NCBI RefSeq assembly: GCF_040537815.1
Contig: NZ_JBEWSZ010000015.1
Coordinates: 1 to 46,944 of the forward strand
Direction: 5' to 3'
Length of the DNA stretch: 46,944 bases
Origin: Mesorhizobium shangrilense
GTDB taxonomy: Bacteria; Pseudomonadota; Alphaproteobacteria; Rhizobiales; Rhizobiaceae
This document shows, piece by piece, positions 154-17,441 of this stretch. A program made the position numbers and the translations under genes. The notes beneath the pieces were generated by a model. That model saw only the letters and a program-made list of their open reading frames with translations, did not search any database and had not been told where the DNA came from. Within the stretch, counting starts at the first letter, position 1. Each line of letters opens with the position of its first letter.

Positions 154-2805
154 CTAACCCGAAGTGCGCCATTGTCGGGACCGGACAAAAGCCTTCAGCG
201 TTTTGGAGTCCATGGCGCTGCCAAAAACATAGCCCTGTAGCATGTCGCAGCCGAGCGTCTGCAGGATGCGGACGTGCTCCATGGTTTCAACGCCTTCCGC
301 GACAACCTCGATGCCAAGCGACCTGCCGATGTCGATGATCGACGCGACAAGTTGCCGTTGCCGTTCGGATTCGACAATCGGGCTGATCAGCTGGCGATCG
401 ATCTTGAGGCGACGTGGCTGAAGCTTCAGCAAGCTGACGATAGACGCATGGCCGGTACCGAAATCGTCGATCTCTAAGTCAATGCCGAGCTGCCTGATAT
501 GATCGATGTTCCAGGTGACCAGATCATCGCTCTCATCGAGAAAGATTGACTCGACGAGTTCGAATGAGACAGTTCCTTGCTTGATATTCAAGTCGCGCAA
601 GCCCTTGATCAGATCCTCGTCCTGAAGGCGCCGCGCCGACACGTTGACCGATACGTGGGGGATGTTCAGCTTCTCAGCCGACCATTCGTCGAAATCTCCG
701 AGCGCCTGTTCCAAAACCGTTCTATCGATGATGGAAACGACGTTCAGTTCCTCCGCAATGTTCAGGAAGATGTCGGGAGTGAGAATTCCCTTTGTCGGAT
801 GCCTCCAGCGCGCCAGTGCCTCCACACCGGCGATGCTGAGCGTCTTTGCATCGAACTGAAGCTGGTAATAGGCGACGAATTCGTTGCGCTCCAGACCGCC
901 AAGAATCTCGTCGGCAATACGTTTTGTGCTGACGATTTTCTTCTGTAACGCATCGGAGAAGAATTCGTATCGATTGCGGCCATTGCTCTTGGCCCGGTAC
1001 AAGGCAATGTCGGCATTAACCAGAATATCCCCGCCAACGCCGTTCTTTCCATCGTCGACAGCAATTCCGACGCTGACGCCAAAGCGGCATTGGTGGCCCT
1101 GATAGTAGGCGGGCAGGCGCATCTGAGCAATGATCCGCTCGGCGAGCATGGAGAGCTGGGTGTCGTCGCAATTCCGGCTGACCACCACGAACTCGTCGCC
1201 GCCGACGCGGGCGACGAAATCCTGATCACCGACATTTGCCTTGAGAACGGCAGCAGCGTGCACAAGCATCGCATCGCCGGCTGCATGGCCAAGCGTATCG
1301 TTGATCTGCTTGAAGCGGTCGAGGTCGATATGAAGAAGCCCGATATGCTGAGCGTTGGAACCGCAGGTGGTGGCAAATTTCTCCAGTATCTCATCCAGGA
1401 AACGCCTGTTCGGAAGGCCGGTCAGCGAATCGTGCAGCGCGTCATGCTCGATGCGCGACTTGGCGAATTCGAGTTCCGAATTTCGTGAATCCGAAAGCTG
1501 CCGTGCCCGTTCCAGATCCTTGTTCAGCAGGACATCGGCAGTCACGTCCCATTCGGCGCCTATCATCTTAGGCGTGTCATTGCCGTCCTGAAAATAGGTT
1601 GCCCTGGTGCGTAGATACCGGATCTCGCCGTCAGGGCGGACAATTCGGTAATCCGATGAGTAAGGCCCCTTGGTGGAGACGGCGCCGTCGAAATCCTTTT
1701 TTGCCCGGGCCAGGTCGAGCGGGTGGATCGCGCCAGCCCAGTCCTGGTATCCACGCGAGCCGCCCTTGCTGCTAATGCCGTAGATTTCATCGAGTCTGTC
1801 GTCCCATACCAGTCTGTTGCAGGCGAGATCATGCTCCCAGACACCGATCGAGGATGCCTCAAGCGCCAATTCCAGGCGCCGTGACAGGCGCCGAAGTTCG
1901 GAATACGTGCGCTGCCGCTCTCCGGCCAGCCGGCCAGCGACCAGGATTGGTATCACCATCGCCGCCGCCGCGGCGGCCATGATCGCGCGCAACAACCAGA
2001 CACCGTCATATGTGGACGCCCAGCCGTTCTTGGGGATGGCGGCGATCTGCCATGAGCCGGATGGAACCAGGATATCGGCTGTTACGGGACTGTTCTTGGC
2101 CACATTGTCATCGCCGAAGAACCGCGTTCCGGCAACTCCCGTCGCGTCCTTGCCGGTGATCGCTATGTCGAGGCCAAGACCAGGGTCCAATAGGCCGCTG
2201 GCCTTGTACAGCCGCTCTACATCGATGACCGCGGAAACGATGCCCCAGAAACGGTCGCTATCGTTCGCGCCTTTGACGAAAACGGGAAAGCGACCGATGA
2301 AGCCTTTGCCGCCCTGCTTGAGGTCGATTGGCCCCGCCAGGATCAACCTGCGTTCGTTACGCGCACGCAGAGCGGTTTCACCCATTACTGCATCGGTGCG
2401 GTAATCGATACCCATGGCCTTCTCGTTGCCCTGCATGGGGTACATCAACGAAACGACAAGATCCGGAGCGCCGCCTACATTGCGCACCAACGAATCCCCG
2501 CTCAGAACACTGCTGGCGAGAGCGGCGAATCGCTGCTGCCCCATATAGGGTTCGGTCACAATCGTCGCGACCAAGCCCCTGACAAGGTGAAGGGTTCCGT
2601 TGATGTTGCCTTCCAGCTTGGCTCGGACAAGATTGACCCGCGCCAGCACATCCGCCCGCGCGGCCAGATCTGACACGAGCCTGTTTTGATGGTCGGCAAA
2701 CACGGCGCATACTGTAATGACCGCAACAGCGATGGCCGCCGGAATATTCGCGGGTGAAAACACGGCCTGCCTGATGCGGCGGTAGCTGATGTCGAAAGTG
2801 GTCAA
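154..2805 (-). CDS. Membrane-bound CHASE-PAS-GGDEF-EAL protein (c-di-GMP cyclase/phosphodiesterase)
   Basis: This 883-residue protein should make and/or degrade cyclic di-GMP at the inner membrane in response to an extracytoplasmic signal. A first membrane segment lies at about 20-37. A periplasmic CHASE domain follows (about 60-260, with the typical PMQGNEKAMGIDYR stretch), then a second membrane segment (about 270-292), a PAS domain (about 308-425), GGDEF (motif intact at 535-539) and EAL (EAL at 662-664, with the later ELVES, DDFGTG and AEGVET motifs present). The RxxD inhibitory site that normally precedes GGDEF is missing: GDQD stands there. Both catalytic cores look complete, so the net activity cannot be predicted. 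The start is a TTG preceded by AGGTCAG. No partner gene is adjacent. Confidence 0.92.
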   Translation of the reverse strand: MTTFDISYRRIRQAVFSPANIPAAIAVAVITVCAVFADHQNRLVSDLAARADVLARVNLVRAKLEGNINGTLHLVRGLVATIVTEPYMGQQRFAALASSVLSGDSLVRNVGGAPDLVVSLMYPMQGNEKAMGIDYRTDAVMGETALRARNERRLILAGPIDLKQGGKGFIGRFPVFVKGANDSDRFWGIVSAVIDVERLYKASGLLDPGLGLDIAITGKDATGVAGTRFFGDDNVAKNSPVTADILVPSGSWQIAAIPKNGWASTYDGVWLLRAIMAAAAAAMVIPILVAGRLAGERQRTYSELRRLSRRLELALEASSIGVWEHDLACNRLVWDDRLDEIYGISSKGGSRGYQDWAGAIHPLDLARAKKDFDGAVSTKGPYSSDYRIVRPDGEIRYLRTRATYFQDGNDTPKMIGAEWDVTADVLLNKDLERARQLSDSRNSELEFAKSRIEHDALHDSLTGLPNRRFLDEILEKFATTCGSNAQHIGLLHIDLDRFKQINDTLGHAAGDAMLVHAAAVLKANVGDQDFVARVGGDEFVVVSRNCDDTQLSMLAERIIAQMRLPAYYQGHQCRFGVSVGIAVDDGKNGVGGDILVNADIALYRAKSNGRNRYEFFSDALQKKIVSTKRIADEILGGLERNEFVAYYQLQFDAKTLSIAGVEALARWRHPTKGILTPDIFLNIAEELNVVSIIDRTVLEQALGDFDEWSAEKLNIPHVSVNVSARRLQDEDLIKGLRDLNIKQGTVSFELVESIFLDESDDLVTWNIDHIRQLGIDLEIDDFGTGHASIVSLLKLQPRRLKIDRQLISPIVESERQRQLVASIIDIGRSLGIEVVAEGVETMEHVRILQTLGCDMLQGYVFGSAMDSKTLKAFVRSRQWRTSG

Positions 2806-4094: not shown

Positions 4095-5027
4095 TCAACT
4101 CACCGGCTCAGCGAGAATTCCATTTTTCCGCCACGTTTCCAGCACCTTACCCAGACGCTGGCGATTTGCGTCGGACAATCGGGCGCTGCCCGGATCGCGG
4201 ACCCGCCCGACTTCGTGACCGAGGAGGCTGAGCGCTTCCTTGACGACAGTCACATTGGCGCCATTGTCGTCGGTGGAGCGGAGTTCCTCGAAGAGTGCGA
4301 TCAATCCGACCAGACGGCGCGCCTCAGTAAAATCGCCGCGCTCAAGGGCGGCATGAATCACCATTGAATGTTCGGGCGCGACATTGACCAGTCCTGAGGT
4401 GAAGCCGCGGGCGCCAACCGCATAGAAAGGGGCCGCCCACTGCTCGGCCAGGCCGCATACCCAAGCGACGCCGCTCCCTTCGGTCGCTCGAATGCAATTC
4501 GCCAGTTGCGTGAGATCGGTCCGCGCGAACTTGATGCCGACGACCTGATCGATCGCCGCAAGCGACATGAGTTCATTGAAGCCCAGAGCGGGCGACCGCA
4601 CATAGAGGATGACTGGCAGACTGACGGAATCGCAAATGCGGCGGACGTAGGCGGTCACTCCGACTGCTCCGGCAAAGGGATCGGCAGGCTCATGCACCAT
4701 GATTGCGTCGAACCCTATCCGCTCCGCCGACCTTGCCAGTTCGATCGCGTCATCGATGGCCCGGCCGACGCCGGCGATCATCACTGTCCGTTCCAGGCAG
4801 CCTTCCTTCGCCGCTTCCTGCACTGCTACGATTTCGCGCGCCGTTTGCGAGAAGAATTCGCCGGTGTTGCCGCCGCAAACAACGGCGTGGATGCCGGCGG
4901 AAGCGATACGCCGCACGATAGAGGTAACCGCCGCCGCATTGATTGATCCGTCCCGCCCATAGGGTGTGACGTGCACGCCGGAAATGCCGTTCAACGCTGC
5001 CTGCACGTCCGCGCGACTCGTGGTCAT
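4095..5027 (-). CDS. DapA/KDG-aldolase superfamily lyase or dehydratase
   Basis: This 310-residue class I (Schiff-base) lyase has the dihydrodipicolinate synthase fold. The GGNTGEF loop (52-58) replaces the GTTGE of true DapA, as is common in 5-dehydro-4-deoxyglucarate dehydratases and sugar-acid aldolases. Tyr142 (ILYVR) and Lys166 (VGIKFAR) sit where the catalytic Tyr and Schiff-base Lys are expected. It probably acts on a 2-keto-3-deoxy sugar acid or a related keto acid rather than in lysine synthesis. Its ATG overlaps the stop of the upstream GntR gene (ATGA), so the two are translationally coupled. It could supply the last step for the SDR, SMP-30 and dehydratase genes of the next block, but that link is inference. 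Confidence 0.88.
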   Translation of the reverse strand: MTTSRADVQAALNGISGVHVTPYGRDGSINAAAVTSIVRRIASAGIHAVVCGGNTGEFFSQTAREIVAVQEAAKEGCLERTVMIAGVGRAIDDAIELARSAERIGFDAIMVHEPADPFAGAVGVTAYVRRICDSVSLPVILYVRSPALGFNELMSLAAIDQVVGIKFARTDLTQLANCIRATEGSGVAWVCGLAEQWAAPFYAVGARGFTSGLVNVAPEHSMVIHAALERGDFTEARRLVGLIALFEELRSTDDNGANVTVVKEALSLLGHEVGRVRDPGSARLSDANRQRLGKVLETWRKNGILAEPVS

Positions 5028-5704
5028 GTTGGCTCTCCGTGTTGCTCGCTGTGGATTCGAATGAGTTCCACTGATCTCAGGATATGCGCGCGCATCGCCG
5101 CCTCCGCCCCGTCGGGATCAGCCCCTTCAATCGCAGTGAGGATCTGAAGATGCTCGCGAAATGCGCGTTCGAATTCATCACATCGCGACAGGACGCGAAC
5201 GCGGTTCGAGCGATCATAGACACGCAGCACGCCGAGGATCTGAGAGAGATACTGGTTGGCGGCGAGACCCTGGATGATCTCGTGGAAGCCTTCATTGGCG
5301 TTGACGACATCGCCAAAATCTCCGGCGGCGGTCGCCGCGCGCATCACTTCGATTTGGCTCCGAAGCTGGGAGAGATCGGCATCCTTTGCTTTCTGGGCGG
5401 CGATGCGAGCGGCGACACCCTCGATGGCGGCGCGAATTAGAGCCATTTCGTGGACTTTCTCGGTCGAGAAAGCCGCGATATAGGTTCCCCGGCGCGGCAG
5501 CGTGACAACCAACCCCTCGGCCTCCAGGCGACGCAGCGCCTCCTTGATCGGCGTGGTCGAAATTCCGAGCATTTCGGCGATTTTGCGCTCGCTCACGCGC
5601 TCACCCGGTTTAAGGCTGCCGTCCAGAATCTGCCCGCGAAGTGCCGTGAAGGTGCGCGCGCGCAGATTTTGTGTTTCTTCGGTGGAAAACTTTCGAAGTT
5701 CCAT
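5024..5704 (-). CDS. GntR-family transcriptional regulator, FadR/FCD subfamily
   Basis: This 226-residue regulator has an N-terminal winged helix-turn-helix (about 14-80, with LKPGERVSERKIAEMLGIS) and a C-terminal all-helical FCD ligand-binding domain (about 85-215). The FCD histidines usually involved in metal or ligand binding are visible in GFHEI, REHLQ and MRAHI. It is the first gene of a two-gene operon with the DapA-like lyase, so it most likely controls that gene and itself in response to a pathway acid. ATG at 5704 is preceded by AAAGGA. A near-perfect 20-bp palindrome lies 17 bp upstream of the start (separate entry), as expected for autorepression. Confidence 0.92.
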   Translation of the reverse strand: MELRKFSTEETQNLRARTFTALRGQILDGSLKPGERVSERKIAEMLGISTTPIKEALRRLEAEGLVVTLPRRGTYIAAFSTEKVHEMALIRAAIEGVAARIAAQKAKDADLSQLRSQIEVMRAATAAGDFGDVVNANEGFHEIIQGLAANQYLSQILGVLRVYDRSNRVRVLSRCDEFERAFREHLQILTAIEGADPDGAEAAMRAHILRSVELIRIHSEQHGEPT

Positions 5705-6548: not shown

Positions 6549-7010
6549 CTAGCGCTCTATGGTGACCACGGCCTCAACTTCGACCGAAATGTCGCCGGGA
6601 AGCGAGGCCACCCCGACTGACGATCGTGCGTGTCGGCCACTTTCCCCGAACACGGATAGGAAGAGATCCGAGCATCCGTCGATTACTGCGGGATGCTCGG
6701 CGAAATCGGGAACAGCGTTCACCATGCCAAAGAGTTTGTTTATCTGCATCACGCGGTCGAGATTCCCGACAGTGTCGCGAAGCACCGCGATAAGAAGCAG
6801 CCCGGCGAGACGGGCGCGTTCCCGGCCCTCTGACAAGCTTATTTCCGACCCGACCTTTCCGCGCGCGAAAAAGCCGTCAGCGAGCAAAGGGCCCTGGCCG
6901 CTAAGGAAGAGGAGATTGCCGGAAGCCGAGCACGAAGCATATTTGCCGGCCGGCGCCGGAACGCGAGGAAGTTCTATACCGAGCTCAAACAGCCGCTGCT
7001 CGACTCTCAT
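6549..7010 (-). CDS. RidA/YjgF/YER057c family protein
   Basis: This protein of about 153 residues has the Rid-family fold, whose best-known members hydrolyse reactive enamines/imines released by PLP enzymes. The C-terminal HARSSVGVASLPGDISVEVEA block contains the conserved Arg (ARS) and Glu (VEVEA) of the substrate pocket. The N-terminal FLSGQGP matches the family SGQ motif. The start is uncertain: ATG at 7010 is chosen, with a GTG four codons upstream at 7022 as the alternative, and neither has a convincing ribosome site. It lies downstream of the SMP-30 genes on the opposite side of an IS5 relic. The partner enzyme is not obvious, and some Rid subfamilies have unknown substrates. Confidence 0.88.
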   Translation of the reverse strand: MRVEQRLFELGIELPRVPAPAGKYASCSASGNLLFLSGQGPLLADGFFARGKVGSEISLSEGRERARLAGLLLIAVLRDTVGNLDRVMQINKLFGMVNAVPDFAEHPAVIDGCSDLFLSVFGESGRHARSSVGVASLPGDISVEVEAVVTIER

Positions 7011-7083
7011 GATCGATGCCACAAATTGGCGATCTGCGGACTGGTGTCAGGACAAAGGCAACTACGTGATTGCATAAGGACCT

Positions 7084-7983
7084 CTAAATTGCAGCCATTG
7101 CGCAGGGCGCCGCCGGGATGCCTACGTCGATCGCAAGCAAGTCTCCAGCGGCAGGCTGGGCGGCGAGTTCAGCGGTGGTGAGGAAGCGGCGCTGTGACGT
7201 CACGAATAGGGTTGAGCCGTTGACCCCGCCCAACATGGGCATCGTCGGCCGGCTCACCTGAAGAGGGACAATCCGGTCCAAGCGTCCGTCGGGCAGCCTC
7301 CGCTCTACACGGTTGCCATGCACGACGGCGATCCAGACCCCACCTTCCCTGTCTATGCACACGCCATCAGGCGTCTCACCTTCATCGTAAACGGCGAAGG
7401 GGCATTTGTGGCTGAGGCTCCCGGTATTCAGATCGTAGTCGTAGGCGTCTATCGTTTTGGTTACGCTGTCCGAGAAATAGAAGACCGATCCATCTGGCGA
7501 CCAGGCAATTGCGTTGGGGATCGTTATGTCGCTAAGAATCTTCCTGACGCTGCCGTCGGTATCGAGGACGAATAGGCCGCCCCAGCGGCCACCTCCACCG
7601 GTCTTGTCCATGCTTCCGAACCAAAGCCGCCCGCGCAGGTCGGCCTTGCCGTCATTGAGGCGAAGGCGACCGTCTTCTTCGGCTGCAGCAACCAGGCGGG
7701 CACTTAGTCCCTTGGCGAGATCGAAGGCATAGAAGCCGTCCTCAAGACCCACGATCAGGCCGCCCGCGCGCCGATTGGTGATAAGACCCGGCATCAGAGG
7801 AAGATTGACAGCCCGGCGCTCGCCGCTGCGCGGCGAAAAGCTGAGCAGCCGCTGGCCCTGAATGTCGATCCACCAGAGAACGTCGGACCTAGGGTCCCAA
7901 CAGGGGCACTCACCGGTCAAGGCATTCGCGTCGTGAACGACAACCGCCTGCGGCTCCAAGTCCTGATCTCTACGCGCGTCCAT
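7084..7983 (-). CDS. SMP-30/gluconolactonase family lactonase
   Basis: This 299-residue six-bladed beta-propeller probably hydrolyses a sugar-acid lactone. The metal and substrate residues known from SMP-30 are all present: Glu25 (TGECPCW), Asn110 (RLNDGKAD), Asn157 (IPNAIAWSPDG) and Asp206 (TPDGVCID). ATG at 7983 is chosen because AGGGG lies about 8 nt upstream; an upstream in-frame start would give an unrelated extension over the preceding gene. It overlaps the 3' end of the IclR::SMP-30 gene by 14 nt, so the two are co-translated. In a non-phosphorylative sugar pathway it would act between the SDR and the enolase-superfamily dehydratase encoded across the divergent promoter. Confidence 0.9.
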   Translation of the reverse strand: MDARRDQDLEPQAVVVHDANALTGECPCWDPRSDVLWWIDIQGQRLLSFSPRSGERRAVNLPLMPGLITNRRAGGLIVGLEDGFYAFDLAKGLSARLVAAAEEDGRLRLNDGKADLRGRLWFGSMDKTGGGGRWGGLFVLDTDGSVRKILSDITIPNAIAWSPDGSVFYFSDSVTKTIDAYDYDLNTGSLSHKCPFAVYDEGETPDGVCIDREGGVWIAVVHGNRVERRLPDGRLDRIVPLQVSRPTMPMLGGVNGSTLFVTSQRRFLTTAELAAQPAAGDLLAIDVGIPAAPCAMAAI

Positions 7984-9682
7984 CAGTAACCCCTGTCTTA
8001 GTGAGAAAGCGTTGCGGCTGCTGGCCACGCGTTTTCGTCTTGATCGCAATGATCCGGCCCGATTCCGGGGCAAGGGAGGAGTAGCCCGGGGGGAGACGGA
8101 TAAACGTCGAGGTCACGAACAAGGTCGAGAGGTCCTCGCCGCCGAAAGCGCAGTTCGTAGGCATTGGAACAGGAAGCGCTATCTCTTCGACGAGCAGACC
8201 GTCCGGAGCATATCGGCGAACGCTCCACCCGCCAAGGCAAGTGACCCAGACATGACCCTCTTCATCGACCGTCAGCCCGTTGGGCTTCCCGGGAAATCCT
8301 TGGGAGGAGATGAAAACCCTTCGATCAGCGAGCGCACCGGAAGCTTCGTTAAACGAGAAGACGTGGACGACGGCATTTTCGCCCTCCGTAAAGTACATGC
8401 GAGTGCCGTCGGGCGAAAAAGCGACGTTCTTCGGCCCGGTGATAGCCGAAAGCTTCACATCGACATTCAGATGCGGATCGATGCAGTATAGGCTGCCGCG
8501 ACCGATCTGCTGGTTGACCGCCATTGTTCCAGCCCACAAACGGCCGCGCGAATCGATCGCTGCATTGTTAAAACGATTGTCGGGCTGATCGGGCTCGGGA
8601 TCGATAAGGCGGGAGGTCTCCCCGGTTTCCAGATCCACGCGGTGAAGGCCACGCTGTCCCGTCAAGATCAGCCGGCCGCGGTCGTCGATGGCGACCCCGC
8701 CGACCAAAAACGGAAGGTCGAGACTATTGGCGCGTCGTGTAGCGGGTTCCCACCAACGCAGCGCTGGCGCTAAGACGTCGACCCAATAAAGTCGGCTGTG
8801 GTCCTCACACCAAATCGGGTTCTCCCCCATGAAGTCGCGCCCCGTCGGGAGCACCTGCAGGTCCGGAGAAATCGCCTTTTCGGGCTTGTCGATCACCTCG
8901 GGCCAGACTAGCGAAGTCCCCTGCTTGCCGGATGCGCGGCGCGCGGCTTCCGCCATGATCCTGCCGGCTTCGTGCAGTTCTTCCGATGGCGTCACATCAG
9001 CATCGAAGGTGCATCCGATCGCACCAATCGGGCGATCGCTGTCATCAACAATGGGGGCAGCGACCGCGGGGCCGCCCGAAGCCGGTTCTCTTGGCACGAC
9101 AATATAGCCAACGGCCTTGGCCACGCTGAGCTCGGCGGCCAATTTCTCCTGTCTGATGCCCGACGCAGAGGCAGCTTCCAAAAACGGTATCTGATCCGAT
9201 TTCGAGAGCGCCGCGATCATGGCTCGCCCAGCAGCCGAGTCGATCGCTGGGCCTCGCGGCCAGATATGAGCCAAACTGGTAAAGACCGGGTCTACCGCCT
9301 CGAAGTCGAGAACGAAAACATTGCTTTCGTCCATTACCGATAAGACGATGGTGCGACCGAGCCGACGAGCAAGCCGCGCCAATTCCGGCTTGGCTACTCG
9401 AATAAGCGGATCCCGATCCAAGGCGGCACGAGCGAGTTCAAGCACTTTGACGCCGAGATGATAAGTTCGGCTCCGGCTATCGAAGCGCACAAGCCTTCGC
9501 CTTGAAAGCGCACTAACGAGCCGGTGTAACGACCCTTTGGGGATGCCGGCGGTCCGTTCCAGGTCCTTCAGCCGCATTGGCGAATGGGCGTTTCCGATTG
9601 CAAGCAGGACATCGAGGCCACGCAACAGGGCCTGCGCGCCTGGGACTTCCGGGTCGTTACCTTCACGCTCATTCGTCAGCAA
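7970..9682 (-). CDS. IclR-type regulator fused to an SMP-30 domain
   Basis: This 570-residue protein joins two families normally found apart. Residues 12-80 are the IclR winged helix-turn-helix (RLKDLERTAGIPKGSLHRLV) and 90-250 the IclR effector domain (PAIDSAAGRA and GYIVVPREP regions). After a linker, residues 275-560 form a complete SMP-30 beta-propeller starting at GENPIW. In the propeller, Glu287 and Asn372 are kept. The positions matching human SMP-30 Asn154 and Asp204 are Lys418 (GPKNVAF) and Asn468 (KPNGLTVD), so the metal site looks lost and the domain may be a sensor rather than an enzyme. The start is a TTG at 9682 with GAGG about 8 nt upstream. The gene is divergent from the dehydratase operon and probably regulates it. 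Confidence 0.9.
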   Translation of the reverse strand: MLTNEREGNDPEVPGAQALLRGLDVLLAIGNAHSPMRLKDLERTAGIPKGSLHRLVSALSRRRLVRFDSRSRTYHLGVKVLELARAALDRDPLIRVAKPELARLARRLGRTIVLSVMDESNVFVLDFEAVDPVFTSLAHIWPRGPAIDSAAGRAMIAALSKSDQIPFLEAASASGIRQEKLAAELSVAKAVGYIVVPREPASGGPAVAAPIVDDSDRPIGAIGCTFDADVTPSEELHEAGRIMAEAARRASGKQGTSLVWPEVIDKPEKAISPDLQVLPTGRDFMGENPIWCEDHSRLYWVDVLAPALRWWEPATRRANSLDLPFLVGGVAIDDRGRLILTGQRGLHRVDLETGETSRLIDPEPDQPDNRFNNAAIDSRGRLWAGTMAVNQQIGRGSLYCIDPHLNVDVKLSAITGPKNVAFSPDGTRMYFTEGENAVVHVFSFNEASGALADRRVFISSQGFPGKPNGLTVDEEGHVWVTCLGGWSVRRYAPDGLLVEEIALPVPMPTNCAFGGEDLSTLFVTSTFIRLPPGYSSLAPESGRIIAIKTKTRGQQPQRFLTKTGVTDGRA

Positions 9683-9750
9683 GTTGCACGCCTCTTCGTT
9701 GGGGTCCTTCGCTTATCACCTGAAACGATCATGTTGACAAGCCATATAAA

Positions 9751-9767
9751 GTTCTACATCGTGGAAC
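9751..9767. promoter_or_regulatory. Candidate IclR-type operator between divergent genes
   Basis: GTTCTAC-ATC-GTGGAAC is an interrupted palindrome with GTTC/GAAC outer arms and AC/GT inner pairs, the shape seen in many IclR-family sites. It lies between the IclR fusion gene (start 9682, leftward) and the dehydratase gene (start 9812, rightward). From there a bound regulator could control both directions. A TTGACA at 9734-9739 lies just beside it, but no matching -10 box is clear. The binding protein is inferred from context. Confidence 0.5.
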
Positions 9768-9811
9768 GACTCCTCATATGTACACCTATGAATTCCATAA
9801 AGAGAGGACAT

Positions 9812-10963
9812 ATGGACGTTATTCAGGCTCTTGAAGGATATGCGATTACGGCGTCCGCGCAGTCGACTTGGCTGCTTCTGGAAATCCGACTGGCGGACGG
9901 CACCGTCGGATTCGGCGAAGCCTCATATTTCGGCCGGGAGGTCGAAATGCAGTCGGTCATTCGGCAAGCCAGGACTCTGCTCATTGGCAGGCCCTGCGAA
10001 TTGCCGCTGGAACCCCTTACGTCGATGCAAAACGGTCGGACGGGTTCGCCCGGAAACCTATTGGCGCACGTCGTGGAACAAGCCGCCATTGATGCGCTAT
10101 CTCGCCGTGCCGGCCTTGCTATGGCAACGTTTCTGGGCGGCGCAGTTAATGCTCGCGTATCTGTCTATGCCAATCTGAATCGGGGCATCGTCGATCGCAA
10201 AGCCGAGGGATTTGCCAAACGCGCCCAAGAAATCGCGAGTTCCGGTCATTACAAAGCTATCAAAATCGCTCCGTTCGATAGCGTACCCGCGGACGGTTCT
10301 GATGTGCTGGAGGGGCCTGCCTTCATCAATAGCGCGCTGCTGCGCGTCGAAGCAGTCCGGGATGCGATCGGCGCTGATGTCCGGCTCCTTGTCGACTGCT
10401 TCGGAAAGCTGACGCCCGCAGCAGCACGGGAGTTTCTACGTCAAGCTGCACGCCTGAATCTGTATTGGGTCGAAGACCCGATCAACTGGGCCGAAGCACC
10501 CCCGGAAGAATCACGCGCCCTACGAAGCCTGGCCAACAACTCCGGAATCCGCCTCGCCGGAGGAGAGGCGCTCGGTTCAGAGCCTGAAGCCGAAGCGCTG
10601 CTCGACCTGGAAGCGCTGGATGTTGTTTTGCCGGACCTGCGCTGGACAGGCCTCGCAACCGGAAAGGCCATCCTGCAATCCGCAATCTGCCGCGGGTTGG
10701 AAACCAGCCTTCATAGCCCCGCAGGACCGATACTAGATCTCGTCAGCCTGCAGGTGGCGGCTACGATACCCTCTTTCAGTATTCTTGAAAGGCAGATCGG
10801 TGAGAGCCCCTTCTACGATCGTCTTCGCGGGGAACCCGCCGTTTTCGAGGACGGTCAAATCGTGGTCGATCTCTCTGGCGGAATCGGCGGCGGGCCAAAC
10901 CGCTCCGTGATCGCGCAACACGCCACCTGTTTCACCACAGAGTATCCCGGAGCATTGGAATGA
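9812..10963 (+). CDS. Enolase-superfamily dehydratase/racemase (mandelate racemase-like)
   Basis: This 383-residue protein has an N-terminal capping domain and a TIM-barrel. Metal ligands are Asp195 (LLVDCFGK), Glu221 (YWVEDP) and Glu252 (AGGEALG). Lys151 is in the catalytic KxK position, but the second Lys is replaced by Ala (KIAPF). His301 in SLHSPAGP is the likely general acid/base, as in the HNPSGP subgroup. It probably dehydrates a sugar acid. ATG at 9812 has AGAGGA directly upstream; a longer reading from 9584 would run into the divergent regulator and has no family similarity. It begins a rightward operon with an SDR and a peptide-type ABC importer. The substrate is unknown. Confidence 0.88.
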   Translation: MDVIQALEGYAITASAQSTWLLLEIRLADGTVGFGEASYFGREVEMQSVIRQARTLLIGRPCELPLEPLTSMQNGRTGSPGNLLAHVVEQAAIDALSRRAGLAMATFLGGAVNARVSVYANLNRGIVDRKAEGFAKRAQEIASSGHYKAIKIAPFDSVPADGSDVLEGPAFINSALLRVEAVRDAIGADVRLLVDCFGKLTPAAAREFLRQAARLNLYWVEDPINWAEAPPEESRALRSLANNSGIRLAGGEALGSEPEAEALLDLEALDVVLPDLRWTGLATGKAILQSAICRGLETSLHSPAGPILDLVSLQVAATIPSFSILERQIGESPFYDRLRGEPAVFEDGQIVVDLSGGIGGGPNRSVIAQHATCFTTEYPGALE

Positions 10964-11011: not shown

Positions 11012-11881
11012 ATGACGGTTTCCGGAAAGCGCGTGCTCATAACCGGGGGTAGCCGCGGGATCGCGGCGCAAATTGCACGCACCTTCGCGACAAAGGGCGC
11101 CGCCGTTGCAATCAATTTTAGCGAGGCCGCCGACAGGTCCGCGGGATGGCCGAATGCCGGCGAAAACCTCGTCTCCGAAATTATGGAGGCAGGGGGCCGA
11201 GCTTACGTAATCGAGGGCGACTTATCTAATCCTGCACAAGCCACGGACATCGTCGATTCGGCGGCGAAGGTGCTCGGTGGCCTTGACGTTCTGGTGTTGA
11301 GTGCATCGGCGCAGATCAACAAGCCATTCCTCGACGTGACGGCAGATGACATCGCCGCGCAGATCCAAGTGAACCTAACCTCAAACATCCTGATCTTGCA
11401 GCGGACAATCCCGATCATGCTGGAGCGCCGGTGGGGCCGTATTATCACGATAGGAAGTGCGCAGGAGGTGGCGCCTTCGGCGGAGATGCCCATCTACGCG
11501 TTGACCAAAGCTGCGATGTGGAATCTGGTTTGCAATCTTGCGGTGCAAACCGCTCCCTTTGGTGTCACCGTCAACAATGTTGCGCCAGGGTTGATCCAAA
11601 CTGACCGCAACGCCCATCGCCGTCGTGACATGGAAGCTTGGAACGCTCTCGCTTGCCAAGCGAACCCGGTGGGGCGAGCAGGCCGCCCTGATGACGTGGC
11701 GGAATGGGTGCTCCACCTTGCTTCGGACAAAGCGGGCTTCACCACCGGTACGAACATCTTGGTGACCGGGGGCGCGCACATCCCAACCAATCGGGCTGAC
11801 GGCCCACCTGGTCGGCTTTCCGACCGCGAGACGGAAGCACTCCGATCCCGTGTGCCTGAGTCCCTGCCCAAGTTATCGTGA
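11012..11881 (+). CDS. SDR family oxidoreductase with altered glycine motif
   Basis: This 289-residue NAD(P)-dependent short-chain dehydrogenase is likely to oxidise a sugar or polyol, or the dehydration product, in the same pathway. The catalytic Ser (ITIGSAQ), Tyr and Lys (YALTK) are present. The cofactor motif is TGGSRGIA (11-18) instead of TGxxxGIG: the last glycine is alanine. The protein is longer than the usual 250 residues. An extra segment lies near 37-50 (ADRSAGWPNAGEN) and the C-terminal tail is extended after the VTGGAHIP strand. It lies 48 bp after the dehydratase gene with AAAGGGG before the ATG, so it is part of the same operon. Confidence 0.9.
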   Translation: MTVSGKRVLITGGSRGIAAQIARTFATKGAAVAINFSEAADRSAGWPNAGENLVSEIMEAGGRAYVIEGDLSNPAQATDIVDSAAKVLGGLDVLVLSASAQINKPFLDVTADDIAAQIQVNLTSNILILQRTIPIMLERRWGRIITIGSAQEVAPSAEMPIYALTKAAMWNLVCNLAVQTAPFGVTVNNVAPGLIQTDRNAHRRRDMEAWNALACQANPVGRAGRPDDVAEWVLHLASDKAGFTTGTNILVTGGAHIPTNRADGPPGRLSDRETEALRSRVPESLPKLS

Positions 11882-11922: not shown

Positions 11923-13674
11923 ATGATAAAGACTCGAAGAATACAATTTGCACTCGCTGGCGTTCTTGCGCTCATAGCGAGCGACGTGACGTATGCCCAG
12001 ACGATCCCGGATGTCCCACGAGACCGCACTTTGGTCGTCGCCTTCAATCCAGAGGCACCGACCTATAGGAATGTAGGACAGGCCAACCCGTATTCGATCA
12101 ATATCGACGATATGCGGGGCTCGATCATCAATATGTTTGAACCTCTATTCTACTATAATACAATTACAGACAAGTTGATCCCTTGGTTGGCGAAGTCTCT
12201 CGAATACAACGACAGCAATACGCAGCTGACCATTCACTTACGGTCCGGGGTCACCTGGAGTGATGGTGAGCCGTTCAGCGCCGACGATGTGGTATTCACC
12301 TTGAGACTCCTGAAGTCGAACGGCGAGACGAAGAAGGACATGGTAAAGGCGACAGCAGTCGCTGAGGATGTCGCGTCCGTCGAGAAGATCGACCAATCTA
12401 CGGTCGTGATCCATCTGACCAAACCCGATCCGCGTTTCGCTTTCCGATATCTGATCAACTGCTTCGAGTCAGGACTTCAATGGCTGCCGGAACACATCTG
12501 GAAAGATGTTGCGGACCCTGCATCCTTTTCCTTCTACGATCCCCAGAAAGGTTGGCCGGTTACGACAAGCCCCTGGAAGGTCGTTCGCTTCACCGACACC
12601 CAGATCTTTATGGACCGACGCGATAAGTGGTGGGCCAGCGACGCCGGTTTAGCCAAGATGCCGGCAATCGAACGGATCATCACCGTGCCGGGCGGAACCA
12701 ACGACCATATGGCGCAATTGATGCTCGCCAATCAGGCCGACATTGCTTTCGATCTGCCCGTTCCGGTCGTAAAGCAGATCCTCAGCCGGAATCCGAAAGT
12801 GACCACCTTCTCCGGCAATAACCCTCCCTTCGGCTCGGCCGATGATTGGCCACCCTCACTCTATTTCAACCACAAGGATCCGATCTGGCAGGACGCCCAT
12901 CTTCGACACGCTGTCAATTATTACCTGGACCGCAAACAACTGGTGGACGTGGGCTTCGAGGGTGCCACTCACCCGATCTTTTCGCCGTTTCCGGGATTCG
13001 GCACGCTCAAGCCATACATCGATGCGATCAAGCCGCTGGCAGATAAATACGGGATTGGCGTCTATGATCCAGCGCGGGGTGACCAAGAAATGGCAGCCGC
13101 CGGCTACGCCAAAAACAGCAACGGAATGTGGCAGAAGGACGGGAAGTTGCTTTCGTCGACCATTGAGACGATCCCGACTCTCGGCTTTCTCGGTCCGCTC
13201 GTGGCCCAGCAGCTGAAGAACCACGGGCTCGACATTGGCTATCAGTCATCGCCGGAGAGCCGCGCAATCATGCGGGATGGAAAATATCAGCTCGCTCTGT
13301 TCGGTCATCGTGGCTCTGACACCGATCCGTTCGCGACCCTCGACGCGTATACATCCAAGAATGCAATTCCAGTAGGCGAGCCGACTTTGTTCCTGGCGCG
13401 CTGGTCGAACGCTGAATACGACAAAATCGTAGCCCAAGTCGGGCACCTCCGCCCTGGCGATCCCGGCATTTTGCCGCTCGTGAAGGCTGCCATGGAAATC
13501 TGGCTCCGCGACGCTGTCGAGGCACCGATTTGCGAATTTTATCTGCGCATTCCGATGAACCAGACGCATTGGACGAACTGGCCTTCCGAACAGAACCCCT
13601 ACATGCAGCCGACTTTTTGGCTGACTTCGGGCCAGTTCGGTTATGTTCTCTGGCAGCTCAAGCCTGTGCAATAG
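11923..13674 (+). CDS. ABC transporter substrate-binding protein, peptide/oligosaccharide type (SBP family 5)
   Basis: This 583-residue periplasmic protein has a Sec signal peptide (cleavage expected after VTYAQ, near residue 25). It shows family 5 features: the long LIPWLAKSLEYNDSNTQLTIHLR start, the SDGEPFSADDVVFTLRLL block (about 107-124) and a two-lobe length near 550 residues. Members bind di/oligopeptides, nickel complexes or, in rhizobia, plant oligosaccharides. Because the operon encodes a dehydratase and SDR, a glycoside or oligosaccharide is as likely as a peptide. A strong ribosome site (AAGGGGA) precedes ATG 11923. A hairpin without a U-tract follows in the gap before the permease genes. 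Confidence 0.92.
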   Translation: MIKTRRIQFALAGVLALIASDVTYAQTIPDVPRDRTLVVAFNPEAPTYRNVGQANPYSINIDDMRGSIINMFEPLFYYNTITDKLIPWLAKSLEYNDSNTQLTIHLRSGVTWSDGEPFSADDVVFTLRLLKSNGETKKDMVKATAVAEDVASVEKIDQSTVVIHLTKPDPRFAFRYLINCFESGLQWLPEHIWKDVADPASFSFYDPQKGWPVTTSPWKVVRFTDTQIFMDRRDKWWASDAGLAKMPAIERIITVPGGTNDHMAQLMLANQADIAFDLPVPVVKQILSRNPKVTTFSGNNPPFGSADDWPPSLYFNHKDPIWQDAHLRHAVNYYLDRKQLVDVGFEGATHPIFSPFPGFGTLKPYIDAIKPLADKYGIGVYDPARGDQEMAAAGYAKNSNGMWQKDGKLLSSTIETIPTLGFLGPLVAQQLKNHGLDIGYQSSPESRAIMRDGKYQLALFGHRGSDTDPFATLDAYTSKNAIPVGEPTLFLARWSNAEYDKIVAQVGHLRPGDPGILPLVKAAMEIWLRDAVEAPICEFYLRIPMNQTHWTNWPSEQNPYMQPTFWLTSGQFGYVLWQLKPVQ

Positions 13675-13727
13675 CGAAGGCCTGCTCCCAATGGGATGCG
13701 ACGATTGAAACTGGGTGTATCAGCGAT

Positions 13728-13751
13728 CCAGCCCCAATCACGAGGGGCTGG
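13728..13751 (+). other. Intergenic mRNA hairpin after the substrate-binding-protein gene
   Basis: CCAGCCCC and GGGGCTGG form a perfect 8-bp stem with an 8-nt loop, between the binding-protein stop (13674) and the first permease start (13772). There is no run of T after it, so it is not a typical terminator. In binding-protein operons such stems often protect the upstream message from 3' decay and so raise binding protein over permease. That role is inferred. Confidence 0.6.
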
Positions 13752-13771
13752 AGGATAAGCGAGAGGATCTG

Positions 13772-14773
13772 ATGTATCGTCATTATCTTGCGAAGAGAGC
13801 GATAATCCTGCTGACAGCCATATGGGCGGCAGCGACCATAAACTTCCTCATTCCGCATATGAGCCCGAAAAATCCGATCGCGGAAAAACTAACCCTCCTG
13901 GCCGCCACATCCGGCATCAGTCCGAGCCGGATCAAGGAGATGTCGGAGGTCTTCTCTGAAAAGTTCGGCCTCAACAAGACCCTATGGGAACAGTACGTGA
14001 CTTATCTCTGGAACGCCGTTCGGTTTGACTTCGGCCCTTCCATCATCAGCTATCCGACGCCGGTCAGCGAGCTGATAGGGCGTGCTCTTCCTTGGACACT
14101 CGGTTTGTTATTCAGCGCAACAGTAATCGCCTTCGCCGCGGGCACGTTACTTGGCGCGGCGGCTGCAAAGTATCGCCGAGCGGGAGCTCTACAAGCGCTA
14201 AATGCGCTCATGATGGTGCTTTCAGCCCTGCCGTTCTATTTAGTTGGACTCGTTCTGATCTATCTCCTCGCCGCCACTACAGGCTGGTTCCCGGTCTCGG
14301 GCGGCTACGACATATTTTCTATTCCGACCTGGTCCTGGTCCTTTGCGCTTGAAGTGCTGGATCATTCCGTTCTTCCCGCTCTGTCCATCGTGATCGCCTC
14401 GGTCGGAGTTTGGGCGATCGGCATGCGGGGCATGATGATCTCAGTCCAAGGCGAGGACTACGTCGAGTTTGCGCGCGCCCGCGGCCTCAAACCGAGTCGG
14501 ATCTTCTTCCGGTATGGAATTCGAACAGCGATCCTGCCGCAGGTAACAGCGCTCGCGCTAAGCATGGGACAGATCGTCGCCGGCGCGATCCTGGTAGAAG
14601 TGGTTTTTGGTTACCCTGGTGTCGGCACCCTATTGTTCCAGTCGATCTCTCTGTTCGACTATCCAACCATCTATGGGATCGTCCTGATCCTCGTCGTCAC
14701 GGTTGCTGCATCGATGTTCATTGTTGACCTGATCGCTCCATGGATCGATCCCAGAATCCGGGTTGAAGCGTGA
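13772..14773 (+). CDS. ABC transporter permease, DppB/OppB type
   Basis: This 333-residue inner-membrane permease has about six membrane segments. The first is at 9-27, then come a long periplasmic loop and a core region with the EAA-type loop (GEDYVEFARARGLKPSRIFFRYGIRTA, in two parts around residue 230) that contacts the ATPase. The C-terminal VEVVFGYPGVGTLL is typical of DppB-type proteins. The start at 13772 is chosen over an in-frame ATG 57 nt upstream because GAGAGGA precedes it and because the extension would overlap the intergenic hairpin. It pairs with the DppC-type gene whose ATG overlaps its stop. Confidence 0.93.
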   Translation: MYRHYLAKRAIILLTAIWAAATINFLIPHMSPKNPIAEKLTLLAATSGISPSRIKEMSEVFSEKFGLNKTLWEQYVTYLWNAVRFDFGPSIISYPTPVSELIGRALPWTLGLLFSATVIAFAAGTLLGAAAAKYRRAGALQALNALMMVLSALPFYLVGLVLIYLLAATTGWFPVSGGYDIFSIPTWSWSFALEVLDHSVLPALSIVIASVGVWAIGMRGMMISVQGEDYVEFARARGLKPSRIFFRYGIRTAILPQVTALALSMGQIVAGAILVEVVFGYPGVGTLLFQSISLFDYPTIYGIVLILVVTVAASMFIVDLIAPWIDPRIRVEA

Positions 14774-15690
14774 TGGCCCCCACGTCGAACCGTATCGAGC
14801 ATACTGGGATGGAACCCGCGTGGGGATCGGCTCACGGTAAAGCGCTTGCCGTGCTCCGTTACCTTTGGCGCAATCCTTCACTTCTCTTTGGAATGGTGAT
14901 GTTGCTTGTGCTTGCTGCGTTTGCAGGGTTGGGCCGGCTGGTGATCGACGTCTCCACCGCCGCGCCTTTATCAGCACCGGCGTCAAGCCCGCCCACCAGC
15001 GAATACCTGTTTGGGGTAGACGCGCAGGGCCGTAACCTCATCGCCGTCATGATCCAGGGAACCTATTTGACCGTCAGAACCGGGCTGATCGCGGGGGCCA
15101 TCGGGACCTTACTCGGCGCCGCGCTCGGCTTCGTTGCCGCCTATTTCGGTGGATGGACAGATCGCATCATTAGCTGGCTAATCGACGTATCGTTGACTGT
15201 CCCAGCGCTCCTCTTCCTCGTGATGATCTCGTCGGTGGTTCAGACGGGCCTGACCTCGATGGGAATGGCGCTGATCATCGCAGCCTTAGCGTGGCGGGTT
15301 CCAGCGCGACAGATCCGAAGTCAAATGCTGGTGATGAGAACATCAATGTTCGTGGATGTCGCTCGAATCTCCGGCGAAGGACCCTTCCGTATCATCTTGG
15401 CCGAAATTACTCCAAACCTGCTCCCATTCCTAATGTCCGCTTTCGTCGCGGCGATGGCCGACGCGATTCTCGCCAGCATCGGCATGGAGGCAATGGGGCT
15501 AGGGCCGCAGAATGAACCCACCTTGGGTATGACCATTTACTGGCTAATGACCTATTCTGCTTTCCTTTCCGGCATGTGGTGGTGGATTCTACCACCAGTC
15601 CTTATCCTGATGACGCTCTTTGTCGGTCTCTATTTCGTCAATGTGGGGCTCGACGAACTTTCCAATCCGCGATTGCGGCGGCTCGGCTGA
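14773..15690 (+). CDS. ABC transporter permease, DppC/OppC type
   Basis: This 305-residue second permease of the importer has a DppC-type cytoplasmic N-terminus and a first membrane segment at about 38-58. The conserved SEYLFGVDAQGRN stretch precedes the permease core, followed by a GPFRIILAEITPNLLP coupling loop and a C-terminal FVGLYFVNVGLDE. The ATG overlaps the TGA of the DppB-type gene (TGATG); a GTG one codon earlier is also possible. Such overlap ties its synthesis to its partner. It ends two bases before the start of the double ATPase gene. Confidence 0.93.
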   Translation: MAPTSNRIEHTGMEPAWGSAHGKALAVLRYLWRNPSLLFGMVMLLVLAAFAGLGRLVIDVSTAAPLSAPASSPPTSEYLFGVDAQGRNLIAVMIQGTYLTVRTGLIAGAIGTLLGAALGFVAAYFGGWTDRIISWLIDVSLTVPALLFLVMISSVVQTGLTSMGMALIIAALAWRVPARQIRSQMLVMRTSMFVDVARISGEGPFRIILAEITPNLLPFLMSAFVAAMADAILASIGMEAMGLGPQNEPTLGMTIYWLMTYSAFLSGMWWWILPPVLILMTLFVGLYFVNVGLDELSNPRLRRLG

Positions 15691-15692
15691 CC

Positions 15693-17441
15693 ATGACATT
15701 GCTCCGCGTTCTAAACCTCAGCGTCGACTTCGCAACTCCGACGAGTCTCATCCATGCGGTACGCGACGTCAGTTTTTCTATAGCTGCCGGCGAAAAAGTC
15801 GGCATCGTAGGTGAGTCAGGATCAGGCAAGACGACCACCGCGCTGGCGTTGGTGCGAATGATCAAGAAGCCCGGCCGAATCGTGAGCGGCTCGGCTCATC
15901 TGGATGGGGTAGATCTCCTGAAGCTGGATGAAGAAGGCATTCGGCGAGCACGATTACAAACAATCGCCTATGTCCCCCAGGGTGGAATGAATTCGCTTAA
16001 TCCGGTCCTACGCATCCGCGAGCAGTTCCTCGATGGGTTGTGGGACCACGGCCAGAAGCGCTCGCGAGACGAAGAGGCGGCAGCGATCCGTACGGGACTG
16101 GAAGGCGTCGGCCTATCCCATGCGGTCGCTGAGATGTTTCCTCACGAACTTTCTGGTGGGATGAAACAGCGCGTCTGTATTGCCATCGCGGTGGCGATGC
16201 AGCCAAGAGTAATCATTGCCGATGAACCGACCAGCGCCCTTGATGTAATTTCGCAGCGGCAAGTGATGAATATGCTCGTCGAGATACAGGACCGCATTGG
16301 CAGCGGTCTGCTCCTTATCGGCCACGACATGGGACTAATGGCGCAAGCGACCGACCGTGTCGTCGTCATGCAGCATGGGTGCATCGTCGATGACGCGCCG
16401 ATCCGGATGATGTTTGCCAAACCTGCCCACCCGTACTCCAAGTTGCTGATCAGCAGCGTTCCGACGGTCAGCAACCGCAAGGAGAGAAATCAGGCGCAGG
16501 CGCAACCGGCCTCAGGTCGCATGCTTCTCAGCCTCGGGAACGTGTCCAAGACCTTTGGCGGTATCTTCGGTGGCAAACAGAAAGTTGCCCTGGAACCCTT
16601 CAGCCTCTCGCTTTCGGAGGATCGGCCTAGCGTGGTCGCGGTAGTCGGCCAATCAGGCTCCGGCAAGACCACGCTGGGACGTCTGATCCTAGGCCTCGAG
16701 TCGCCTTCCGGCGGGGAAGTGCTTTACCGTGGAATGGCAATTAAACGGCTGCATGGCAAAGTTGCGGCCCGGTACCGTCGAGAGGTGCAGGCGATCTTCC
16801 AAGATCCTTACGGGTCTTTCAATCCTTTCTACCGGGTTGACCGGACGCTAGCTTTGCCGCTGCTGCAGTTCGGGGTCGCAAAACATCGCGACGAAATCTA
16901 TGAAATCATGACCAATGCCTGCGCGGCTGTAGGTCTCTCCGCGCCGGAGGTGCTGGACCGCTTTCCGCATCAACTTTCGGGCGGACAAAGGCAGCGCCTG
17001 ATGGTAGCGCGGGCCCTGTCGCTGCGACCTAAGCTGATCGTTGCCGATGAGCCAGTATCGATGATCGACGCTTCTCTCCGGATGTCGATCCTAGAGCATT
17101 TGCGAGCCCTCAAGGATGAGCACAATATTTCGATCATCTATATCACCCACGATCTCGCAACTGCATATCACATCAGCGACTACGTCTTGGTACTACATCA
17201 GGGCCGTGTTGTCGAAGCTGGCGCGCCCCGCGAGGTAATCGAACGACCGCGTCATCCCTATACGCGCGCGCTTGTAGATGCCATTCCTTGGCCGGATCCG
17301 AACCGGGCCTGGTCAAAAGCGACCGACCAAATGACTGACGGATGGAACACGTCTCAGATTGTTCGTGGACAGATCGATGGTATCAGCTTTGGCTCGGCGC
17401 CCAGTCGGCTGCATCACACAATCACTGAATCAGCGAAATAG
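15693..17441 (+). CDS. Fused double ABC ATPase for a peptide-type importer (DppD-DppF fusion)
   Basis: This 582-residue cytoplasmic ATPase carries both nucleotide-binding domains in one chain. The first domain has Walker A GESGSGKTT (about 38-46), signature LSGGMKQR and Walker B VIIADEPTSALD. The second has GQSGSGKTT (about 319-327), LSGGQRQR and LIVADEPVSMID. In the second domain the usual TSALD is VSMID, as in many F-type subunits. The start at 15693 lies 2 bp after the permease stop; longer in-frame readings would extend back into the permease. It completes a four-gene importer with the genes from 11923 onward. Confidence 0.94.
   Translation: MTLLRVLNLSVDFATPTSLIHAVRDVSFSIAAGEKVGIVGESGSGKTTTALALVRMIKKPGRIVSGSAHLDGVDLLKLDEEGIRRARLQTIAYVPQGGMNSLNPVLRIREQFLDGLWDHGQKRSRDEEAAAIRTGLEGVGLSHAVAEMFPHELSGGMKQRVCIAIAVAMQPRVIIADEPTSALDVISQRQVMNMLVEIQDRIGSGLLLIGHDMGLMAQATDRVVVMQHGCIVDDAPIRMMFAKPAHPYSKLLISSVPTVSNRKERNQAQAQPASGRMLLSLGNVSKTFGGIFGGKQKVALEPFSLSLSEDRPSVVAVVGQSGSGKTTLGRLILGLESPSGGEVLYRGMAIKRLHGKVAARYRREVQAIFQDPYGSFNPFYRVDRTLALPLLQFGVAKHRDEIYEIMTNACAAVGLSAPEVLDRFPHQLSGGQRQRLMVARALSLRPKLIVADEPVSMIDASLRMSILEHLRALKDEHNISIIYITHDLATAYHISDYVLVLHQGRVVEAGAPREVIERPRHPYTRALVDAIPWPDPNRAWSKATDQMTDGWNTSQIVRGQIDGISFGSAPSRLHHTITESAK

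What the first reader, a model, noticed from the sequence alone, without database searches (positions are those of the whole stretch)
7970..9682. IclR regulator fused to an SMP-30 propeller that has lost metal ligands
The sequence shows a full IclR regulator (HTH plus effector domain) followed in one frame by a full SMP-30 propeller. Relative to human SMP-30, Glu18 and Asn103 are conserved (Glu287, Asn372), but Asn154 becomes Lys418 and Asp204 becomes Asn468. The neighbouring stand-alone SMP-30 keeps all four. A catalytically dead lactonase domain attached to a DNA-binding protein suggests a sugar-lactone or sugar-acid sensor evolved from a pathway enzyme. I cannot tell whether this fusion has been reported.
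Basis: partly seen in the sequence, partly recalled or inferred. Interest (0 to 1): 0.78.

Follow-up and report, generated by a model that had tools for sequence, protein, structure and literature searches.

The report
Sugar regulator with retired lactonase domain
This bacterial gene encodes a DNA-binding regulator fused to a propeller of a sugar-lactone-splitting enzyme family that has lost two of its three metal-holding residues, while a separate gene next door keeps them, so the fused propeller likely no longer cuts lactones and is predicted to sense sugar acids or lactones instead, showing how an enzyme may turn into a sensor.

Summary
ORF 7970-9682 (-) encodes HTH_IclR, IclR_C and an SMP-30/SGL propeller in one frame. 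Glu287 and Asn372 are kept; Lys418 and Asn468 replace metal ligands Asn154 and Asp204. The stand-alone SGL next door keeps all four positions.

The fusion is a recurrent family that databases already auto-label (85 of 100 hits carry both domains). No paper on it turned up in the open-access library I searched. There are two states. Ligand-kept fusions (34 of 36 rows fully intact) sit in sugar-acid operons with no other SGL gene in the fetched neighbourhood (0 of 32 loci; 26 with 7 kb or more on both sides). Ligand-lost fusions (window type, 88 of 88 rows, plus one sister) have a separate intact SGL nearby in 6 of 7 loci, adjacent in 4. Trees of both domains fit one fusion, then one loss, with Lys or Arg always at the old Asn154 position.

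Best reading: a bifunctional lactonase-regulator gave up catalysis to a separate gene and kept its pocket, likely as an effector sensor acting at a GTT-11-AAC operator (9751-9767). Catalytic death, effector and DNA binding are inferred, not shown. New variant of a known kind: an enzyme domain co-opted by a one-component regulator, as in MocR.

The parts
7970..9682 (-). IclR-SGL fusion, 570 aa, TTG start
   Evidence: ORF; Pfam; AlphaFold2 mean pLDDT 92.5
9479..9631 (-). HTH_IclR DNA-binding domain (residues 18-68)
8930..9427 (-). IclR_C effector/oligomerisation domain (residues 86-251)
8105..8830 (-). SGL/SMP-30 propeller (residues 285-526)
   Evidence: Foldseek to xylonolactonase 7plc, TM 0.94 by target length
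8822..8824 (-). codon of Glu287 (kept metal ligand, Glu18 of regucalcin)
8567..8569 (-). codon of Asn372 (kept; Asn103 of regucalcin, not a direct ligand in XylC)
   Evidence: PMC9795676 passage
8429..8431 (-). codon of Lys418, in place of metal ligand Asn154
8279..8281 (-). codon of Asn468, in place of metal ligand Asp204
7084..7983 (-). stand-alone SGL with all ligands; ATG at 7981-7983 overlaps the fusion's end by 14 bases (longest ORF reaches 8073)
9751..9767 (.). predicted operator GTTCTACATCGTGGAAC (GTT-11-AAC form, by inspection) in the divergent intergenic region
   Evidence: motif class PMC8222616 passages
9812..10963 (+). divergent enolase-superfamily sugar-acid dehydratase-like gene (MR_MLE), likely start ATG 9812 (an in-frame ATG also at 9788)
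11012..11881 (+). SDR dehydrogenase
11923..13674 (+). family 5 solute-binding protein (SBP_bac_5)
13715..14773 (+). ABC permease (BPD_transp_1)
14770..15690 (+). ABC permease (BPD_transp_1)
15576..17441 (+). double ABC ATPase with an oligo_HPY region (longest ORF; true start likely later)
6549..7022 (-). RidA/YjgF-like protein
5024..5704 (-). GntR/FCD regulator
4095..5027 (-). DHDPS/KdgD-like aldolase or dehydratase

Best explanation
The gene encodes an IclR-type protein whose fused SMP-30 propeller has lost two of three metal ligands and likely no longer hydrolyses lactones, and the protein is predicted to work as a one-component sensor that binds a sugar acid or lactone in the old active site and controls the divergent sugar-acid operon. 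Shown by sequence: one fusion clade; a state with all ligands kept and no other SGL gene in the fetched neighbourhood; a state with Lys or Arg at the Asn154 position and no Asp at 204; and a separate ligand-complete SGL gene, adjacent in four of seven ligand-lost loci. Inferred: the ligand-kept state is ancestral, and those fusions are the operon's working lactonase as well as its regulator. When a stand-alone lactonase joined the operon, the fused propeller was freed from catalysis. The Lys ammonium may stand where the metal ion stood, so a carbonyl or carboxylate can still be held without hydrolysis. Ligand binding would be relayed through the short linker (residues about 252-274) to the IclR part and change binding at the GTT-11-AAC operator 9751-9767. 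The effector is most likely the aldonate or lactone handled by the operon's own SDR and lactonase.
For: Domains and single frame; recurrent architecture, 85 of 100 hits. Ligand states: ligand-lost 88 of 88 rows have K (83) or R (5) at 154 and no Asp at 204; ligand-kept 34 of 36 fully intact, the other 2 with A or G at 204; stand-alones 41 of 42 intact. At 80% redundancy the Lys/Arg is 57 of 57, Arg101 and Asn103 57 of 57, Glu18 55 of 57 (other 2 Asp). Propeller conservation is about equal in both groups (mean entropy 1.57 and 1.49; 40 and 37 of 242 columns at 95% or more), so the domain is not decaying. Trees: fused propellers one clade (94), ligand-lost clade 99, with L073 94; fused IclR domains one clade (95), ligand-lost 99, with L073 91. 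Separate SGL in 6 of 7 ligand-lost loci against 0 of 32 ligand-kept loci; 26 of the 32 have at least 7 kb on both sides, the largest fusion-to-SGL distance seen (flanks listed). The four adjacent SGLs form one clade (99) in which the window's SGL is sister to the other three. Model pLDDT 92.5; best fold match xylonolactonase with D-xylose, TM 0.94 by target. Operator type recurs in L062, L101, L102 and, with no mismatch, in L073 between DHDPS and SBP5; the GTT-11-AAC class is linked to sugar and sugar-acid regulons (PMC8222616, passages).
Against: No activity, ligand or DNA binding is shown. L066 (ligand-lost) has no separate SGL in 19.9 kb, and L001's lies about 7 kb away beside a LacI gene and may serve another pathway. 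Ligand loss happened once on the tree, so 6 of 7 against 0 of 31 (Fisher 2.5e-6, fusions then in hand) is not a set of independent events. Transporter type and KDGal kinase change together with ligand loss, so the whole pathway differs, not only the lactonase. Two members of the ligand-kept group (L074, L078) lost Asp204 without a separate SGL nearby. IclR_C is about as conserved as in the other group (entropy 1.65 and 1.67) and may be the effector site. The operator type is absent at L001 and L066 and not exclusive: ligand-kept L079 (no mismatch) and L078 (one mismatch) have it before an operon gene too. In the window, weaker matches (up to 3 mismatches) are no more than mildly enriched (15 against 9.2 expected, 6 of 100 shuffles as many).
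Confidence: 0.58

Rival explanations
1. Effector sensing stays in the IclR_C domain; the dead propeller is a structural or oligomerisation module, or a docking platform for pathway enzymes.
For: IclR_C is present and about as conserved as in ligand-kept fusions (entropy 1.65 and 1.67). Group-specific changes also lie in or near IclR_C, for example W141 against G, and Leu (Val in the window's row) against Arg at 191.
Against: The propeller keeps Arg101, Asn103 and mostly Glu18, with Lys or Arg always in the old metal site, which a mere scaffold would not need.
Confidence: 0.22
2. The propeller is still an enzyme with a changed, metal-free or lysine-based chemistry.
For: The pocket is conserved and Lys (rarely Arg) is fixed at the old ligand position.
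Against: Two of three metal ligands are gone; a ligand-complete SGL is encoded beside it; no known SMP-30 enzyme works this way (recalled).
Confidence: 0.12
3. Loss of ligands is neutral decay after the separate lactonase arrived; the protein works as an ordinary IclR repressor and the propeller is a passenger.
For: Position 204 varies (N, G, A, T, S, C) in ligand-lost fusions.
Against: Propeller conservation is not relaxed and the Lys/Arg column is 57 of 57 at 80% redundancy; the fusion persists across the ligand-lost clade.
Confidence: 0.08

Closest known systems
IclR-family regulators (PcaR/PcaU/PobR, BhcR, KdgR)
   Same: HTH_IclR plus IclR_C; best NCBIfam scores to the PcaR/PcaU/PobR and BhcR models, all far below cut-off; palindrome of the GTT-11-AAC form described for the family (PMC8222616, passages read).
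   Different: An extra propeller of about 300 residues; usual members are about 250 aa (PMC8222616, passage).
SMP-30/gluconolactonase family (regucalcin; Caulobacter xylonolactonase XylC)
   Same: Same propeller fold, TM 0.94 to 7plc; Glu18 and the conserved Asn kept.
   Different: Two of three metal ligands replaced (Asn154 to Lys, Asp204 to Asn); fused to a regulator.
MocR/GabR regulators (winged HTH fused to an aminotransferase-fold domain)
   Same: A DNA-binding domain joined to an enzyme-fold domain that serves as sensor (abstract beginnings seen in search listing).
   Different: Unrelated DNA-binding and enzyme families; the cofactor PLP is kept there, whereas here two metal ligands are replaced.
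Unnamed IclR-SGL fusions annotated 'sugar lactone lactonase YvrE/DNA-binding IclR family transcriptional regulator'
   Same: Same domain order; the window protein belongs here.
   Different: A large group of them, for example in Sinorhizobium (L064, L145), keeps the catalytic residues.

Membership tests
IclR-family transcription factor | N-terminal HTH_IclR | tested here: met
   PF09339 E 9e-11, 41.8 bits, cut-off 22
IclR-family transcription factor | IclR_C effector domain | tested here: met
   PF01614 E 2.6e-15
IclR-family transcription factor | palindromic operator at target promoters | tested here: inconclusive
   GTT-11-AAC palindrome at 9751-9767, recurring in L062, L101, L102, L073; absent in L001, L066; no binding data
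IclR-family transcription factor | length of about 250 aa, two domains only | tested here: not met
   570 aa with a third domain; usual length from PMC8222616. Not a strict criterion of the family.
SMP-30/gluconolactonase enzyme | SGL propeller fold | tested here: met
   PF08450 E 2e-69; Foldseek to 7plc
SMP-30/gluconolactonase enzyme | metal ligands Glu, Asn, Asp | tested here: not met
   Glu kept, Asn to Lys418, Asp to Asn468
SMP-30/gluconolactonase enzyme | metal-dependent lactonase activity | not testable with these tools
   needs assay
IclR-SGL fusion clade | both domains in one chain and each nested in the fusion clade | tested here: met
   (SH-aLRT 94 and 95, quick method, no bootstrap)

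The most novel reading that the evidence does not exclude
IclR-SGL fusions are an enzyme-to-sensor transition caught in both states. The ligand-kept form is a bifunctional 'trigger enzyme', the lactonase of its sugar-acid operon and at the same time its DNA-binding regulator. The window form handed catalysis to a separate adjacent gene and put a lysine where the catalytic metal sat, turning the active site into a metal-free receptor for the same sugar lactone or acid.
Probability: 0.4. Interest if true: 0.78.

Novelty: new variant of a known kind. Interest (0 to 1): 0.6.

Why it matters
It offers a natural before-and-after series for how a catabolic enzyme becomes a regulator's sensor: the same fusion with intact and with dismantled active sites, and with a separate enzyme gene present or absent nearby. 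It predicts which annotated 'SMP-30/gluconolactonase' proteins are regulators and likely not enzymes, and it could yield new sugar-acid biosensors.

Tried and rejected
Frameshift or chimeric gene: rejected (one frame, many relatives). The propeller as a copy of the neighbouring SGL: rejected, the two lie in different parts of the propeller tree. Independent fusion of the ligand-lost form: not favoured, both domain trees place it with the other fusions. Viral contigs: 63 stretches matched a pattern, none encodes a relative. A regulon beyond the window: of 3 genome sites matching the widened pattern without mismatch (backward control 0), the 2 outside the window fall inside ORFs (a seryl-tRNA-synthetase-like one and an SDR-like one, named by eye). 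Promoter and terminator scan 9600-9900: none found. One genome-contig scan with a single sequence gave only Chelatococcus; an alignment query would have been better. Papers: full-text searches listed no paper on an IclR-SMP-30 fusion (one search listed one genome paper, not opened; one search listed 25 of 140 papers, of which I looked into PMC5507952, PMC8222616 and PMC8529709, by passages only). The library lacks most subscription journals, and supplements could not be searched.

Rows left out of counts: P0086 (propeller stretch unreadable) and P0092-P0100 (one of the two domains only, by precomputed Pfam). L073 is counted apart. The rows include near copies and locus copies of P entries (hence the 80% redundancy figures) and four partial proteins (P0032, P0043, P0081, P0082). 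L145 and L149 were added only to the neighbourhood count. Neighbourhoods of near-copy fusions L050-L052 and L096 were not fetched. Of 135 plasmid records with a match only five neighbourhoods were read, one of them without annotation.

Full report
What is there. ORF 7970-9682 (-) is a 570-aa protein in one frame with HTH_IclR (18-68), IclR_C (86-251) and SGL (285-526). The AlphaFold2 model is confident (mean pLDDT 92.5; block 251-260, the linker, at 70), and Foldseek's best match is Caulobacter xylonolactonase 7plc (TM 0.94 by target length, rmsd 1.7). Aligned to regucalcin, Glu18=Glu287, Asn103=Asn372, Asn154=Lys418, Asp204=Asn468. In xylonolactonase the iron is held by Glu18, Asn146 and Asp196 but not by the conserved Asn101 (PMC9795676, passage), so two of three true ligands are gone. 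The downstream stand-alone SGL (ATG at 7981-7983, overlapping the fusion's end by 14 bases) keeps all of them.

The fusion is a family. A protein search returned 100 relatives (from 7995 scored candidates); 85 carry both HTH_IclR and SGL. In whole genomes it is scattered. Full-length matches: 3 of 398 sampled genomes of the phylum. Matches at E 1e-60 or better: 16 of 397 of the order; 7 of 385 of the class, 2 of them propeller only; 4 of 295, 1 of 10 and 13 of 87 in three families chosen around other genomes, two of these searched with relatives as query; 2 of 146 of the window's genus, the other one being ligand-kept. At E 1e-100 with a Roseibium-type query, 2 of 269. Samples overlap and only the top candidates per genome were scored in most of them. 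Among plasmid records 135 match at E 1e-40, 123 over 80% of the query or more, mostly Sinorhizobium (58) and Agrobacterium (46) by name (only the best 30 rows were seen).

Two states. Ligand states at Glu18/Asn103/Asn154/Asp204: the window's group has K (83) or R (5) at 154 and no Asp at 204 in 88 of 88 rows. The other fusions are ENND in 34 of 36, the exceptions being D204A (L078) and D204G (L074). Stand-alones are ENND in 41 of 42. A lone sister, L073, has G, Q, K, N. At 80% redundancy Lys/Arg is 57 of 57 and Arg101 and Asn103 57 of 57. Other group-specific switches, each in most rows, are Asp104 to Thr/Ser (Asn in the window), Gly155 to Asn and Arg507 to Met. Overall propeller conservation is not relaxed.

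History. With the ligand columns left out, the fused propellers form one clade (support 94), the window group one inside it (99), L073 its sister (94); stand-alones lie outside. The IclR domains give the same picture against 15 other IclR proteins (95, 99, 91). These are quick trees with SH-aLRT only; that the intact state is ancestral rests on taking the unfused rows as outgroup. The simplest history is one fusion with an intact site, then one loss shared by L073 and the window group (N154K, D204N).

Neighbourhoods. I fetched about 8 to 12 kb on each side where contigs allowed; L083, L103, L082 and L113 are cut short, L068 and L081 have one short side, and 26 of 32 ligand-kept loci have at least 7 kb on both sides. 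Genes were labelled with small profiles built from annotated relatives and the window. Ligand-kept loci (32): SDR in 30, enolase-type dehydratase in 29, DHDPS in 27, sugar ABC binding protein in 26, KDGal kinase in 20, a separate SGL in 0. No other lactonase is annotated in the three annotated ligand-kept stretches. Ligand-lost loci (7): dehydratase 6, SDR 6, family 5 binding protein with Dpp permeases 6, KDGal kinase 0, a separate SGL 6. It is immediately downstream in the window, Sulfitobacter (L062), L101 and L102; about 6 and 7 kb away in L073 and L001; absent in L066. All six separate SGLs keep the ligands. They fall in three SGL clades; the four adjacent ones are one clade (99) in which the window's SGL is sister to the other three. 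With the 7 stand-alone SGL matches found in 8.35 Mb, a 20-kb stretch of the window's genome would hold one by chance about 2% of the time (my arithmetic). The Fisher value for 6 of 7 against 0 of 31 fusions is 2.5e-6, but relatedness makes it too optimistic.

Operator. GTTCTACATCGTGGAAC at 9751-9767 lies between the fusion's start (9682) and the divergent dehydratase (ATG 9812). By inspection it has the GTT-11-AAC form that a comparative study ties to sugar and sugar-acid regulons, though that form is less common in Proteobacteria than other IclR motifs (PMC8222616, passages). It recurs between fusion and dehydratase in L062, L101 and L102. The pattern was widened after those were seen, so they are not independent tests; the exact hit in L073, between DHDPS and SBP5, came afterwards. 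None at L001 or L066. Ligand-kept L079 (no mismatch, at the fusion's start) and L078 (one mismatch, at DHDPS) also have it. In the own genome the only exact site outside an ORF of another gene is this one; in the window weak matches are not clearly above chance. Several ligand-kept loci carry the other IclR motif class, TTGGAACTNAGTTCCAA, at the fusion's start (L068, L069, L071, L103, L104; the pattern was drawn from palindromes seen at such loci), so the half-site order may have switched as well.

How it likely works (inference). In ligand-kept operons the dehydrogenase makes a lactone, the fusion's propeller opens it, and dehydratase, kinase and aldolase follow; the enzyme is at the same time the DNA-binding regulator. 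In the window type the separate SGL does the chemistry, and the fused pocket, with Lys in place of the metal, holds lactone or aldonate without cutting it and signals to the IclR part. Rivals: IclR_C senses and the propeller is a scaffold; an altered enzyme; a passenger domain. The first is the strongest rival, because IclR_C is about as conserved as in the ligand-kept fusions.

What is known. Databases name the architecture; no paper on it turned up. The principle, an enzyme domain co-opted as sensor by a one-component regulator, is known from MocR/GabR (abstract beginnings in listing) and, from memory, ROK repressors, BirA and PutA. So: new variant of a known kind, with an unusually clear evolutionary series.

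Noticed in passing
window 2942-46144: Much of the 46.9-kb contig looks like a catabolic island: two further enolase-superfamily genes (17870-19051, 23636-24808), GMC oxidoreductase (19048-20658), two HpcH/HpaI aldolases, a D-serine-dehydratase-like protein, asparaginase, an amidohydrolase and a formamidase-like protein (10 ORFs scanned).
   Followed up: partly
L073 (G578), 8690-10480: Sister of the ligand-lost fusions in which all four positions differ (G, Q, K, N); it may be a further step of the same reuse or decay.
   Followed up: partly
L074 8791-10557 and L078 7771-9642: Fusions of the ligand-kept group that lost Asp204 alone (G and A) without a separate SGL nearby.
   Followed up: no
ligand-kept loci L068, L069, L071, L103, L104: Operator candidates are of the reversed IclR motif class (TTGGAACTNAGTTCCAA), unlike the GTT-11-AAC type of most ligand-lost loci; L079 and L078 are exceptions.
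   Followed up: partly
L062, L101, L102, L073: Ligand-lost loci often hold sulfatase genes (4 of 7) and Dpp-type transporters (6 of 7), hinting at a sulfated or oligomeric sugar substrate; no sulfatase was found in the window's first 20 kb.
   Followed up: partly
G559 (L066, L081, L082): One genome holds three IclR-SGL fusions, one ligand-lost and two ligand-kept.
   Followed up: partly
L068 5341-7074 and 12386-14137: Two ligand-kept fusions point toward each other within 9 kb.
   Followed up: no
window 154-2805: CHASE-PAS-GGDEF-EAL cyclic-di-GMP protein at the contig end.
   Followed up: no
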